Positions 9,824 through 24,963 of a DNA stretch of 30,619 bases are shown piece after piece (the first letter of the stretch is position 1; every line of letters begins with the position of its first letter). Under the pieces are notes generated by a model. The model was not told the DNA's origin, made no database searches, and saw only the letters and a list, made by a program, of their open reading frames with translations. The translations under genes and the position numbers were made by a program. The stretch comes from a virus, in IMG/VR virus record IMGVR_UViG_3300035698_011881, positions 1 to 30,619 of that record. The stretch is one strand, 5' to 3'.

Positions 9824-10964
9824 ATGGCTTTAAGTAGAGTACGTGGAATTTATGGAATCCATGAAACGACTTTTTATAACTTGAGCAATCGTTTACCGTA
9901 TGGAACATTAAAGGTTTTAGCCGGTTCACAGTTTACACTTTCGGGTGAAATTGTGAAATTAGAGGGTAAATAATGACTGCCCCTGTAAATGGTAACATTT
10001 ATAGCAAATCCTGTGAATTCAAGGGATCTCCCTATGGGACAATCTTGAGCCAAGCCCTTTTTACAGGGAAGGTGCAACGACTATCTATTTATAGAGTACA
10101 CTGTAAGCCAATGACAGTGGAAGCGCAGGACAACCTTAGGGTTGATGATATAGTCTAATCTCTTGTGTAAGCAGGAGCAGCGTGACAGCGGTTTAGATTT
10201 TGCGAGTCTAAGCGAATATAATGGGAAGCTACAATTATGCTTGGGCAGTAGAGGACGGCAAACAAACGGCTGAACTTACTTTCACAAGCAGAGAATATCC
10301 TCCTTTCCTTTATGAGCTTTTCTTAGGTAAAGCACCAACGGAAACAGCAGCAGATACAACTGGAACAATAACCACATTAACAGATGCTTCTGGATCTTCA
10401 GTTGCAGCAAATACTGGTATTGGTTCAATATCTGTAACAAGCGGTTCAGCTGGTGAATTAAAATTCACTAAGTACGTTGTTAAGGCAACAGCCGCTGACA
10501 CTGTAACGCTTTACGGCCTTAGTGATCAAGATTTTAATCGTGGAACTGATAAGGAATTTGTCGATGACGATCTAGAATTGTTATCTGCTGACCTTACAAT
10601 CACACAAAGCACAGTAACAGCTGTTGCTGGTTTTGGTTTAGATTTGAACGGAGGCAGCGGAGCGATTTCCATGGTTAGCGGAAATACGGCTGTATTCGAG
10701 GTTTTACCACCAAGCTCAAGAAGTTTCACAGTTACAATCGGCGCTCCAAATAACAGAACACCTGAATTCGGTTGTTATTTACAAGCTGAGGTTTTAAGTA
10801 ATCACAGAATGTATGCAATTGACTGTTTTAGGTGCAAAGCAATTGGAATGCCTATTGCATTACAAGAAAAAGCTTTCAGTGAAGCTGAAATAAAAGCAGA
10901 AGTTTTTTATGATGCTGCACGTAGCGGAATATGTTCTATTAGAGATATTACGGTGACGGATTAA
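9824..10964 (+). CDS. Major tail (tube) protein, split by a group I intron (exons 9824-9967 and 10224-10964)
   Basis: The tail tube gene, preceded by AAGGAGG. Exon 1 gives 48 codons ending in Gly (GGT). The genomic frame then meets TAA after one more codon. Removing 9968-10223 joins codon 48 to GGAAGCTAC in phase 0, giving a 294-aa protein that reads through LEG-GSYNYAWAVEDG and then SREYPPFLYELFLGKAP, a pattern I know from phage tail tube proteins. The rest is a Thr/Ser/Gly-rich beta protein of normal tube size. Exon 2 has no ribosome-binding site of its own, and the ATG at 10221 is the last three bases of the intron. Without splicing only a 49-aa stub is made, so tail production depends on the ribozyme. 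Confidence 0.88.
9968..10223 (+). ncRNA. Group I self-splicing intron, no homing endonuclease (IA-like)
   Basis: A 256-nt intron; all core helices can be drawn. P1 pairs exon GGGU (9964-9967) with GCCC (9979-9982), including the U-G pair at the 5' splice site. P2 is 9986-9991/9996-10001 with a GUAA loop; P3 is 10009-10015/10124-10130; P4 is 10019-10023/10044-10048. P5 is 10029-10032/10036-10039, and P6a is 10055-10058/10065-10068. P7 is GACUAU 10079-10084 with AUAGUC 10150-10155, the classic R and S elements. P7.2 is 10099-10104/10114-10119, P8 is 10131-10135/10140-10144, and P9 is 10160-10165/10172-10177. It ends in the required G at 10223. The extra helix between P7 and P3 suggests subgroup IA. 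The 60-codon frame inside is incidental. Confidence 0.93.
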
Positions 10965-11033: not shown

Positions 11034-11109
11034 TAAATTATCAGCCAACACATTTAATTGTAAAGCCTTACTAAATTATCAGCCAACACATTTAATTGTA
11101 AAGCCTTAC
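11034..11109. repeat. Perfect 38-bp tandem duplication
   Basis: Bases 11034-11071 are repeated exactly at 11072-11109. The unit holds the 3' end of the minus-strand gene at 11054-11236. As 38 is not a multiple of three, the second copy is read in another frame and replaces the gene's last codons. Perfect identity implies a recent event. Confidence 0.95.
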
Positions 11110-11820: not shown

Positions 11821-12888
11821 CTATATCAAATTAAGTATCAAGTCAATTAAATGCTCTTGTTCTGAAAAACTTTTGTCTTCATCAAAATCAATCGGATGAA
11901 TATTTGAATCTATGTCAAGGATCCAGTTCCAAGGTGCCGCGTCTCTGTGCGTTTTGTTCATATGAGATTCAAAGCTATATCTCAAGTGTGTTTTATCATA
12001 AAAAGGAAGCATGCCGAATCTGAAAATGTCCGATAACAAAAAGCCCTCGATCTTTTTCGTTATTCTATATTTCCCCATTGTTTCTTTGATGAAATAATGA
12101 ACATTGTCTTTTTCAGCATACATATAAGTTTTCTTTCTAGGCATGACAATCGGTGCAAAGAAGTTCTTAACTCTAGGTGCTCCGAATTCCATGTAAGGAA
12201 CATTGAACTTGTCATATACATTGTAATTCATACCGTTCAGAACAAGCCTCTCGCTTATCTTTCGCTTGAGTTGATACAAAGGTCTTATCGTGTTCAAATG
12301 CGTTCGATGTACGCCAACTAAACGAATATTGTAATTATGATTTGTATATATGTCCAAAAGGTTTTTCCAGCCAACAAAAGGATTTACATTCATGGTGAGA
12401 TTCTTTGCAAAATAAGCATATTCTAGGTGCGTCGCTTGTTCGATGTAAATAACTTGAGCATGTTCTGAGATCTTATTCAGAAATTCTTTTCCAGCCTCAA
12501 GATCATGATGAAAAATACTTAAGCACAAATATGCTTGATAATTTATGTTGTCAACATCCTGATATTTGCAATTTAAGAAGCTGACATTTGTAATATCGTT
12601 TCGATGCTTTAAATATTCAGCAATATTAAAAGATTCCTTATCAAATTCTATTCCAAGCATTTTTCTTTTATTTATTTCAGAAAGCGTCAAGAGAAAATAG
12701 CCAAAACTAGAACCAACATCACAAATTGTTGATTGCTCAAGCTTACCATAATTGAATGATCTATCTGCTGTTAATATGGTCCTATACCGATCATAACAAT
12801 TTCTTTTTCCTGTGAATTGTGTCTTATAAACGTTTTGATATATCTCATTGACAGTGAATTTCTTATCCTTAAATCTTATTTCTGGCAT
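11821..12888 (-). CDS. Methyltransferase-kinase fusion, probable glycan modification
   Basis: A 355-aa protein with two enzyme-like halves. Residues 45-190 look like a class I SAM methyltransferase: motif I ICDVGSSFGYF (55-65), an acidic GIEFD, and a LSIFHHD segment after the fourth strand. Residues about 230-355 resemble a small-molecule or LPS kinase: a candidate Lys in YFIKE, a catalytic loop HRDAAPWNW (314-322) and a metal-binding DFD (334-336). AAPWN-type loops occur, as I recall, in sugar or LPS kinases. It overlaps the GT9 gene by 13 nt and has a GGAGG ribosome-binding site. The partnership suggests it decorates a sugar made or transferred by GT9. The substrate is unknown. Confidence 0.75.
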   Translation of the reverse strand: MPEIRFKDKKFTVNEIYQNVYKTQFTGKRNCYDRYRTILTADRSFNYGKLEQSTICDVGSSFGYFLLTLSEINKRKMLGIEFDKESFNIAEYLKHRNDITNVSFLNCKYQDVDNINYQAYLCLSIFHHDLEAGKEFLNKISEHAQVIYIEQATHLEYAYFAKNLTMNVNPFVGWKNLLDIYTNHNYNIRLVGVHRTHLNTIRPLYQLKRKISERLVLNGMNYNVYDKFNVPYMEFGAPRVKNFFAPIVMPRKKTYMYAEKDNVHYFIKETMGKYRITKKIEGFLLSDIFRFGMLPFYDKTHLRYSFESHMNKTHRDAAPWNWILDIDSNIHPIDFDEDKSFSEQEHLIDLILNLI

Positions 12889-13982
12889 TTTGCCTCCAGT
12901 GCTTTTTGAAGCTCATTCCATACTTTGTTAACTGTTGGCAAACATAATAATTCTGGATATTTTTTCGGACATGTTGTGATATTCAAGTTGTCAGTTAGAA
13001 ATTTCATGTCATATGCACATTGACATTCAGAATCAACATGCCAACAATCTTTGGCGAAAACACCGTCTCTGAATGGTAAGCGGTGACTACTGTCTACCAC
13101 TGTGAAGATGCAAAATATAGGACATTTAGTTGCTGCAGCGATGTGCATCGTTCCAGTGTCCATTGTGATCAACATTCTTGAATAGTCCATTAATGCAGCG
13201 GTTTCGAGAAGTGTCAATTTGTTATATAGATCAATTGTACCATTTAGGGGTACATAATTGTCCATTTTCGAACCACTTAGATTTTTTATGTCTCGATCTC
13301 CACCAACGCAGACAACTTTCAATTTCGAATACGTGGATTTTATTCGATCTAATATGTTTTGCCAATTTTCTTTGGCCCACGTTCTTGTTTTCCAAAAAGC
13401 TTTATGTGGATGCATCAAAACAACAGGTTCATTCTCGATGTTAATACCATTTTCATTACATATTTTTATAGCTCGATCTCTGTCGAAAACAGAGTAAAAA
13501 AGATCATAATGCTTATCTTGAGGTTTAAGGAATTTCTTGAATGTTATAAATGAAACGAAATCCACGCTATGAGTAAGGCTGTGTATCGGATAATTTGGAT
13601 TATTAACATCAAAGCCCTTTATTGTCGCATTATAATACTGAAAAATATTGTCTGTCGCATCATCGGTCCAAGGAATAATATTATTCATGTATGGATTAAG
13701 TTTAAATATTTCTGGCATTGGTGTTATTACGTCAATCAAAGCCTTTGGGTATATTCTCCGCATTTCTCTGAGAACAGGCGTGTGACTTAATGCATCTCCG
13801 ATTGATCTAGGTGTAATCATATATAAGATTTTCATTTTATCTTCTGGAACAACATTTAAATAACAATTAGTGTGATATATTTTCCCATGATCATTTACGA
13901 CCTGAATCGGATCGCCTTCTTTTTGAGCAACTTTCTTTCCACAATAACAACATTCGTTTTTGAATTCTCCTACTTTTTGCAT
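12876..13982 (-). CDS. GT9 heptosyltransferase-like glycosyltransferase with zinc knuckle
   Basis: A 368-aa protein. From residue 50 it is a GT9 (ADP-heptose:LPS heptosyltransferase family) GT-B fold. RSIGDALSHTP (59-69) is the N-terminal acceptor-side motif, HPHKAFWKTRTW (191-202) opens the donor half, and MDTGTMHIAAA (274-284) is the sugar-nucleotide motif. Before it lies a short domain with C11, C14, H37 and C40, a CxxC...HxxC knuckle likely to bind zinc, unusual for GT9. The start is chosen for a GAGGAG nine bases upstream. It overlaps the genes on both sides by 13 nt. It probably adds a sugar to host LPS or a capsule and thereby changes the phage receptor. Confidence 0.85.
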   Translation of the reverse strand: MQKVGEFKNECCYCGKKVAQKEGDPIQVVNDHGKIYHTNCYLNVVPEDKMKILYMITPRSIGDALSHTPVLREMRRIYPKALIDVITPMPEIFKLNPYMNNIIPWTDDATDNIFQYYNATIKGFDVNNPNYPIHSLTHSVDFVSFITFKKFLKPQDKHYDLFYSVFDRDRAIKICNENGINIENEPVVLMHPHKAFWKTRTWAKENWQNILDRIKSTYSKLKVVCVGGDRDIKNLSGSKMDNYVPLNGTIDLYNKLTLLETAALMDYSRMLITMDTGTMHIAAATKCPIFCIFTVVDSSHRLPFRDGVFAKDCWHVDSECQCAYDMKFLTDNLNITTCPKKYPELLCLPTVNKVWNELQKALEAKCQK

Positions 13983-14395: not shown

Positions 14396-14806
14396 ATGAA
14401 AATCAGTGAAACAATTCCACAGTTACCAACATTCAAACTTAACTCAAAAGAATATACTTTGAAGCTTTTGAACATGGACGATTTTTCATATTTTGAAGAA
14501 AAATACGGATCACTTGAAAGTCTTATCGAGCACTTAACTGCCGATGGAAAATTTAAGTCTAAGTGCGAAATAATTTATTCACAACTTGTTGAAAAAGAAG
14601 ATTTTCCAGAAAAAGAAGTTGAAGAATTTGACCGCATGGGAAAGAAACAAAAGTTTGTTAAGAGCGGACCTGTTGTTTTCATGGAAAACATTTCACTATT
14701 AACAATCAGTGAACCAATAGGTGCTTTTTTAAAAGCTGTTGAATTAAGCACGCCTAAGCCGACCGGAGAAGTTGGTAAAAAAAAACAGCCAAAGCGAGTG
14801 AAATAG
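14396..14806 (+). CDS. Tail assembly chaperone, short form (lambda gpG-like)
   Basis: A 136-aa protein upstream of the tape measure gene, the usual site of tail assembly chaperones that coat the tape measure before tube polymerisation. It starts with GGGAG at the proper distance. The sequence (FKLNSKEYTLKLLNMDDFSY) is typical of the N-terminal chaperone domain. It ends with a lysine-rich stretch encoded by a run of nine A where a -1 shift leads into the next frame. Most ribosomes should terminate at 14806 and make this short form. Confidence 0.8.
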   Translation: MKISETIPQLPTFKLNSKEYTLKLLNMDDFSYFEEKYGSLESLIEHLTADGKFKSKCEIIYSQLVEKEDFPEKEVEEFDRMGKKQKFVKSGPVVFMENISLLTISEPIGAFLKAVELSTPKPTGEVGKKKQPKRVK

Positions 14807-15069
14807 ATTGGACAATTATTTTTCATTTATTATCTTTTTATTATGGCTATACAATAGAGGACATTAGAAAAATGACAATGCGAGAAATTGCTTTTTCAGT
14901 TGAGCACATACAAACACAAGCAAACAATGACAAGAAGTTTGACGCTGATTTACACGGCGCTAAAATAACTTTTCCAGAAGTAGATACGAAGACAGCTCAA
15001 AAAGAACTTAGTGCTAAACAGGTAGAAGCCATGAACAAGAATAAAGATAATTTTTTTAAGGGTGAATAA
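14396..15069 (+). CDS. Tail assembly chaperone, -1 frameshift fusion (lambda gpGT-like)
   Basis: The frame one base back is open from 14779, just after TAA at 14776, to the stop at 15067-15069. After slipping on A9 the product continues TAKASEIDWTIIFHLLSFYY and then GYTIEDIRKM, the hallmark of the T part of GT chaperones, for a total of about 224 aa. An ATG at 14872 inside the T part has no convincing ribosome-binding site and would lose this conserved segment, so it is probably not a real start. The stop overlaps the tape measure ATG (TAATG). The long form should bind both tape measure and tube protein. Confidence 0.85.
14777..14785 (+). promoter_or_regulatory. Slippery A9 run for -1 programmed frameshift
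   Basis: Nine A in a row follow GGT; the zero frame reads AAA AAA AAA CAG. The heptamer A-AAA-AAA lets both tRNA-Lys re-pair one base back. No clear pseudoknot could be drawn downstream, so the run itself may be enough. Confidence 0.8.
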
Positions 15070-23796: not shown

Positions 23797-24963
23797 ATGA
23801 AAATCTTAATACTTTCTTTTTTTGTGTTCATATCTATTTTTACATATCATTATGGCGGAATGACTGATTATTGGTGGAGCCGCTGGACCATATACCTTGG
23901 ATTTTGTTCGTTCCTTTTAGCTCATTATATTTATAAAAAATATTCTTTGCTCAGTGCTATAACTTTTATGTGGGTATTGATAAGCTCATTATATACTTTC
24001 TCGTGGTATGACAATCATTACGCGCATGCAAACGGCGCTTCTATTCTCGCTTTGAGGCTGTATTGTTGTTATGCGTGTTTTTGTTTTGTCATGTCTGTTA
24101 TTGCTATTATCAGATTAGAAAATTTTTATAATTATATACTGAAAATTTTTAGGGTTATGTGTTTGGTGAATTCAGTTTATGTTTTAGTTCAATGGGCTAT
24201 CGGAAATAATTTTTTACATCGCGATGGTTTTTGGGGAAATGGATCAAACAATGGCAGCTTGATTGCTTTCACTTATCCTTTATTGTTTAATATTCCGATG
24301 AAGAACAAAATTGTTAAATCTATTATTTTGCTTATTCCTGTTGTTGCGATACTTTGCACATTAACGAGCGTTCCAGTGGGTGTTTTAGCCGTTGTTATTT
24401 CTGTTTATTTATTCTTTAAACTAAAATCATATAAACTGAAGATTGCAAGTGTTTGTTTGGTCTTTATGGTTTTATTCTTATTAGGATATTTTCTAGATGC
24501 AAAAAACTTCTTCAGCTCAAGTCATAGATTCGATTTATATATGATTACAATTATGGAATATATTGAAAAAGGAAATTACATATTCGGTCAAGGCATGGGA
24601 AACTTTCATTTATTTGGACCAATGTTTCAAGTAGACCATAATCATGATGTCGGCGCGTGGAATATTTGGCTTCATTCTGATTGGATTCAAATAACTTTTG
24701 AAACTGGCTGGTTTGGTTTGGTATTATATTTATTGCTTTCTTTGCAGATTTGTATACAATTTATTAAGAAAAGAAGCTATGAATTGCTTGCTTGTTTCTG
24801 TGGATTTTGTGCTTGTGGACTTTTCAATTTTCCTTTGCATTATCCGGTTCCAGCATTCTTTGGTTTGCTTCTTGTTGCTTTGGCTTTAACGAGGAGGAAT
24901 TATGGGAAAACCATGCGGAACGATGACCATGACCGAACGCGTCATGTTACAACGAGTTATTGA
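23797..24963 (+). CDS. O-antigen polymerase/ligase-like membrane protein (Wzy_C family)
   Basis: A 388-aa, very hydrophobic protein with about ten membrane segments. Between segments near residue 265 it has GQGMGNF and then HSDWIQITFETGWFG, the periplasmic loop pattern of Wzy/WaaL-type enzymes, which polymerise O-antigen units or attach them to lipid A core. An SHRFD arginine lies before it, as in the family. The last 20 or so residues are read out of frame over the start of the next gene, so the original C-terminus may have been shorter. Phages use such genes to alter host O-antigen and block superinfection. Its place behind lysis genes is odd for that role. Confidence 0.75.
   Translation: MKILILSFFVFISIFTYHYGGMTDYWWSRWTIYLGFCSFLLAHYIYKKYSLLSAITFMWVLISSLYTFSWYDNHYAHANGASILALRLYCCYACFCFVMSVIAIIRLENFYNYILKIFRVMCLVNSVYVLVQWAIGNNFLHRDGFWGNGSNNGSLIAFTYPLLFNIPMKNKIVKSIILLIPVVAILCTLTSVPVGVLAVVISVYLFFKLKSYKLKIASVCLVFMVLFLLGYFLDAKNFFSSSHRFDLYMITIMEYIEKGNYIFGQGMGNFHLFGPMFQVDHNHDVGAWNIWLHSDWIQITFETGWFGLVLYLLLSLQICIQFIKKRSYELLACFCGFCACGLFNFPLHYPVPAFFGLLLVALALTRRNYGKTMRNDDHDRTRHVTTSY

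What the first reader, a model, noticed from the sequence alone, without database searches (positions are those of the whole stretch)
9968..10223. Group I intron in the major tail protein gene
All core helices P1-P9 with the diagnostic P7 (GACUAU/AUAGUC), a U-G pair at the 5' splice site and a terminal G can be drawn by hand. Removing it joins the two reading frames in phase 0 at a Gly-Gly-Ser junction. Genome annotators would report two broken genes here. Phage introns are best known in DNA metabolism genes; one in a tail tube gene makes virion assembly depend on RNA splicing.
Basis: partly seen in the sequence, partly recalled or inferred. Interest (0 to 1): 0.9.

Follow-up and report, generated by a model that had tools for sequence, protein, structure and literature searches.

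The report
Self-splicing intron in phage tail gene
An uncultivated bacterial virus, probably infecting Bdellovibrio-like bacteria, has a standard self-splicing RNA intron in the gene for its tail tube; the call is sound, but introns in phage tail and capsid genes were already known.

Summary
Confirmed. The group I intron covariance model (Rfam RF00028) matches window 9958-10177 over its full length at 97.4 bits against a cutoff of 50, E = 3e-24. P1 to P9, the P7.1/P7.2 insert, the U-G splice pair and a terminal G are present. The intron is 9968-10223, 256 nt, with no homing endonuclease. Removing it joins 9824-9967 to 10224-10964 in phase 0, giving 294 residues. All 50 viral contigs found with an exon-2-only query, and two Bdellovibrionota/Oligoflexia genome contigs, encode the gene uninterrupted across this junction. 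Gene order and a fold search led by phage tail tubes support major tail protein. Splicing itself is inferred.

The novelty claim does not hold. Phage Twort orf142 encodes a tail tube protein (PMC11878797); I find three group I introns beside Twort's tail sheath gene. Mycobacteriophages BAKA and LittleE splice introns out of a minor tail and a capsid gene (PMC3706429). In a survey of related introns in viral contigs, at least 21 of 94 flanking segments match major head proteins. A new member of a known kind.

The parts
9824..9967 (+). Exon 1 of the major tail (tube) protein gene, 48 residues, ending GAGGGT (last base U9967)
   Evidence: ORF 9824-9973 with upstream AAGGAGG; aligns to residues 1-49 of intact homologue L001
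9968..10223 (+). Group I intron, 256 nt, subgroup IA-like, no homing endonuclease
   Evidence: RF00028 97.4 bits, E = 3e-24; absent from all intact homologues
9962..9984 (+). P1: exon GAGGGU with internal guide GCCCCU; U9967-G9979 at the 5' splice site
   Evidence: Pair check, 5 of 6
9984..10003 (+). P2 hairpin with GUAA tetraloop
   Evidence: 8 of 8 pairs
10009..10130 (+). P3 (10009-10015 with 10124-10130)
   Evidence: 7 of 7 pairs
10018..10073 (+). P4-P5-P6-P6a domain
   Evidence: P4 6/6, P5 4/4, P6 3/3, P6a 4/5 pairs
10079..10155 (+). P7, guanosine-binding helix, GACUAU (10079-10084) with AUAGUC (10150-10155)
   Evidence: 6 of 6 pairs; aligned to the model core
10084..10119 (+). P7.1 and P7.2 hairpins, the insert typical of subgroup IA
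   Evidence: 4/4 and 6/6 pairs; unaligned insert in the Rfam alignment
10131..10144 (+). P8
   Evidence: 5 of 5 pairs
10160..10177 (+). P9
   Evidence: 7 of 7 pairs
10180..10213 (+). P9.1 (weak) and P9.2 (10191-10213)
   Evidence: Local fold, -10.5 kcal/mol for 10178-10223
10223..10223 (+). Terminal guanosine (omega G)
   Evidence: Of the three Gs at 10223-10225, only this one leaves exon 2 in frame and matches the homologues
10224..10964 (+). Exon 2 of the major tail (tube) protein gene, 246 residues plus stop
   Evidence: 67% identical to L001 over residues 1-243

Best explanation
A group I (IA-type) ribozyme of 256 nt sits in a highly conserved stretch of a siphophage-type major tail protein gene. 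After transcription, a guanosine bound at P7 attacks after U9967, which is paired with G9979 in P1; the freed exon 1 then attacks after G10223, joining the exons in phase 0 to encode a 294-residue tail tube subunit. An in-frame UAA at 9971-9973, just inside the intron, stops ribosomes before they reach the ribozyme core. Shown from sequence: the ribozyme fold, exact boundaries, reading frame and intronless relatives. Inferred: that the RNA splices in the cell, and that the full-length protein is the one in the virion.
For: RF00028 over its full length at 97.4 bits, the same score as one of the three Twort introns. Near-complete P1-P9 pairing, splice-site U-G and terminal G. All 50 viral contigs found with an exon-2-only query have the two coding parts contiguous, nearly all with Gly-Ser after the junction, as do Bdellovibrionales L194 and Oligoflexia L195. 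Joined product 66% identical to L001 along its length, so both exons remain conserved. Tail tube identity: fold search leaders include YSD1 major tail protein and the Mystique tail tube (PDB, best E 5.7e-5) and a major tail protein at E 2.2e-7 in the viral library; head genes upstream and tape measure downstream, order repeated in L001 and L194.
Against: No RNA or protein data. P10 is only two pairs. The structural model used for the fold search has mean pLDDT 56.6 and low TM-scores (about 0.3-0.4), and no PHROGs or Pfam profile names the protein, so 'major tail protein' rests on fold and synteny.
Confidence: 0.95

Rival explanations
1. A decayed intron that no longer splices, so that the gene is broken and the contig is from a defective phage.
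For: P10 is weak and no transcript data exist.
Against: All catalytic helices are nearly fully paired, the model is matched end to end, and both exons are intact and conserved.
Confidence: 0.04
2. Two separate genes: a 49-residue peptide and a 247-residue protein starting at ATG 10221.
For: Both open reading frames exist and a gene caller would report them.
Against: More than 50 relatives encode one continuous protein; ATG 10221 has no evident ribosome-binding site and overlaps the splice site; a ribozyme lies exactly between.
Confidence: 0.02
3. The intron is real but the interrupted gene is a virion protein other than the tail tube.
For: No curated profile names it and the structural model is of low confidence.
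Against: Leading named fold matches are tail tube / major tail proteins and gene order fits.
Confidence: 0.07

Closest known systems
Staphylococcus phage Twort orf142 introns (tail tube gene)
   Same: Group I introns in a phage tail tube gene; PMC11878797 states that orf142 encodes a tail tube protein. I find three RF00028 hits (100.9, 97.4, 63.6 bits) between two ORFs annotated as virion structural proteins just after the tail sheath gene.
   Different: Twort is a myovirus with three introns, an intron-encoded nuclease and reported exon skipping; here one intron, no nuclease, in a siphophage-type gene cluster with no detectable protein relative among the isolated phages searched.
BAKA/Optimus 265-bp intron in a mycobacteriophage minor tail gene
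   Same: Small group I intron without homing endonuclease in a tail gene, U before and G at the end, intronless relatives; splicing shown by RT-PCR (PMC3706429).
   Different: Minor tail protein rather than tube; different phage lineage.
LittleE major capsid gene intron
   Same: Intron spliced out of a virion structural gene during late expression (PMC3706429).
   Different: Capsid gene, and carries a homing endonuclease reading frame.

Membership tests
Group I catalytic intron (RF00028) | Covariance model match above the gathering score | tested here: met
   97.4 bits against 50, model 1-253/253
Group I catalytic intron (RF00028) | P3-P8 and P4-P6 core with P7 guanosine site | tested here: met
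   P3 7/7, P4 6/6, P5 4/4, P6 3/3, P7 6/6, P8 5/5
Group I catalytic intron (RF00028) | U-G pair at the 5' splice site and terminal G | tested here: met
   U9967-G9979; G10223 fixed by homologues
Group I catalytic intron (RF00028) | P10 guide pairing with exon 2 | tested here: inconclusive
   Two pairs only
Group I catalytic intron (RF00028) | Self-splicing with a guanosine cofactor | not testable with these tools
   Needs in vitro transcription or RNA from infected cells
Subgroup IA | P7.1/P7.2 hairpins after the 5' strand of P7 | tested here: met
   P7.1 4/4, P7.2 6/6 at 10084-10119; no subgroup-specific model was available
Mobile (homing) group I intron | Homing endonuclease reading frame | tested here: not met
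   256 nt; the 61-aa ORF at 9973-10158 matches no PHROGs or Pfam family
Phage major tail (tube) protein | Tail tube fold | tested here: met
   Model of intact homologue L001; leading matches are tail tubes and major tail proteins, but model confidence is modest
Phage major tail (tube) protein | Position between tail terminator and tape measure genes | tested here: inconclusive
   Tape measure downstream is named by PHROGs; the upstream terminator is inferred from position; order repeated in L001 and L194
Phage major tail (tube) protein | Match to a curated family profile | tested here: not met
   No PHROGs or Pfam hit at 0.001 for the joined product; one weak hit to an unnamed PHROG among 15 homologues

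The most novel reading that the evidence does not exclude
In uncultivated phages this intron lineage lives chiefly in late virion genes (capsid, tail tube), and guanosine-dependent splicing helps time the production of structural proteins.
Probability: 0.08. Interest if true: 0.5.

Novelty: new member of a known kind. Interest (0 to 1): 0.25.

Why it matters
It fixes the annotation of a tail tube gene that pipelines would report as two broken genes, in a phage lineage linked to Bdellovibrionota that has no relative among the isolated phages searched. The survey around it suggests that group I introns in virion genes, especially capsid genes, are common among uncultivated phages, which qualifies the view that phage introns colonise mainly DNA metabolism genes.

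Tried and rejected
Free-energy folding alone: z = -1.71, not decisive. The first structure prediction, on the joined product with one homologue, failed (pLDDT 28.2) and is not used. A solved-structure sequence search found no relative. Protein searches against isolated phages found nothing for the window or two homologues. The earlier profile search for homologues used a peptide pattern spanning the splice site and so could have missed intron-bearing relatives; it was repeated with exon 2 only, and again none carries an intron at this site. Siphophage Silence was considered as a precedent, but its intron is in the terminase gene.

Full report
What is there. The Rfam group I intron model matches the window once, at 9958-10177, with 97.4 bits (cutoff 50), E = 3e-24, over all 253 model positions. 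A direct pair check gives P1 5/6, P2 8/8 closed by a GUAA tetraloop, P3 7/7, P4 6/6, P5 4/4, P6 3/3, P6a 4/5, P7 6/6, P7.1 4/4, P7.2 6/6, P8 5/5, P9 7/7, and a P9.2 hairpin at 10191-10213. The 5' splice site is marked by U9967 paired with G9979 and the intron ends in G10223. P10 is short, two pairs. P7.1/P7.2 point to subgroup IA; no subgroup-specific model was available to test that. The record, a 30,619-base virus contig, holds no second intron.

Boundaries and frame. Exon 1 (9824-9967) and exon 2 (10224-10964) join in phase 0 into 294 codons. The best relative, L001, encodes the same protein without interruption, 66% identical along its length, with ...VKLEG|GSFNYAW where the window has ...VKLEG|GSYNYAW. 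A homologue search with exon 2 only, which is not biased against intron-bearing genes, returned 50 viral contigs, and in all of them the upstream part is contiguous; one of them (L073) has its frame broken further downstream. Two bacterial genome contigs from Bdellovibrionales and Oligoflexia metagenome assemblies are also uninterrupted. The intron therefore sits in one of the most conserved spots of the protein (Gly50 and Ser51 of L001 are invariant in the 15-sequence alignment) and was found in no other member. Some of the 50 contigs are near-identical to one another, so they are not 50 independent lineages.

What the gene is. No curated profile names it. A structure model of L001 built from 15 homologous sequences has modest confidence (mean pLDDT 56.6), but its fold matches are led by tail tube and major tail proteins in both the solved and the viral libraries, for example YSD1 major tail protein and the Mystique tail tube. 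Gene order supports this: portal, head protease and major head protein upstream, tape measure protein downstream, with the same order in L001 and in the Bdellovibrionales contig L194. I take it to be the major tail (tube) protein of a siphophage-type virus of Bdellovibrionota; the host is an inference from the two genome contigs.

How it works. The ribozyme would remove itself by the usual two guanosine-initiated transesterifications. Unspliced RNA gives only a 49-residue peptide that stops at UAA 9971-9973, just inside the intron, which would keep ribosomes off the core; that such early stops help splicing is from general knowledge of the T4 td intron, not tested here. No homing endonuclease is present: the 61-codon frame in the intron (9973-10158) matches nothing. 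Splicing in cells is inferred.

Comparison with what is known. [quoted passage not shown] In the Twort record I find three RF00028 matches between two ORFs annotated as virion structural proteins, directly after the tail sheath gene; one scores 97.4 bits, equal to the window's. Mycobacteriophages BAKA and Optimus carry a 265-bp intron without endonuclease in a minor tail gene and LittleE one in its capsid gene, splicing shown by RT-PCR (PMC3706429). The kind is known.

How unusual is the host gene? Of 94 non-redundant segments, 21 match one major head protein family (phrog_1328), with further head families listed, and 14 match one DNA polymerase family (phrog_17). Among ten segments picked from the introns most similar to this one, nine match head protein or head protease families and one a single-strand annealing protein. 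The sample is selected by core sequence, so these are not frequencies for all phage introns, but virion genes are plainly ordinary hosts for this lineage. No tail family was among the 25 listed.

Verdict. Observation and interpretation hold; the implied novelty does not. Interest 0.25.

Noticed in passing
loci L075-L193: Group I introns with the same 18-base core often interrupt major head protein genes in uncultivated phages (at least 21 of 94 flanking segments match phrog_1328), more than any single DNA polymerase family.
   Followed up: partly
window 11821-13982, minus strand: Between the tail tube gene and the putative chaperone ORFs lies a block on the opposite strand with a family 9 glycosyltransferase (12876-13982) and a weakly matched methyltransferase-like protein (11821-12888); L001 has a similar-looking gene at the same place.
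   Followed up: partly
window 23797-24963: Protein matching the O-antigen ligase family Wzy_C, possibly a surface-modifying gene carried by the phage.
   Followed up: no
window 11034-11109: Perfect tandem duplication of a 38-base unit just downstream of the tail tube gene.
   Followed up: no
window 9973-10158: A 61-codon frame runs through the ribozyme core, its ATG overlapping the exon 1 stop (TAATG); no family match, probably chance.
   Followed up: partly
L073, from 4001: In this homologue the frame of exon 2 breaks after 79 residues though the match continues: a sequencing error, frameshift or another interruption.
   Followed up: no
window 14396-15069: Two ORFs (14396-14806, 14872-15069) ahead of the tape measure gene, also paired in L001 (5693-6124, 6211-6414), sit where tail assembly chaperones with programmed frameshift usually lie.
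   Followed up: no
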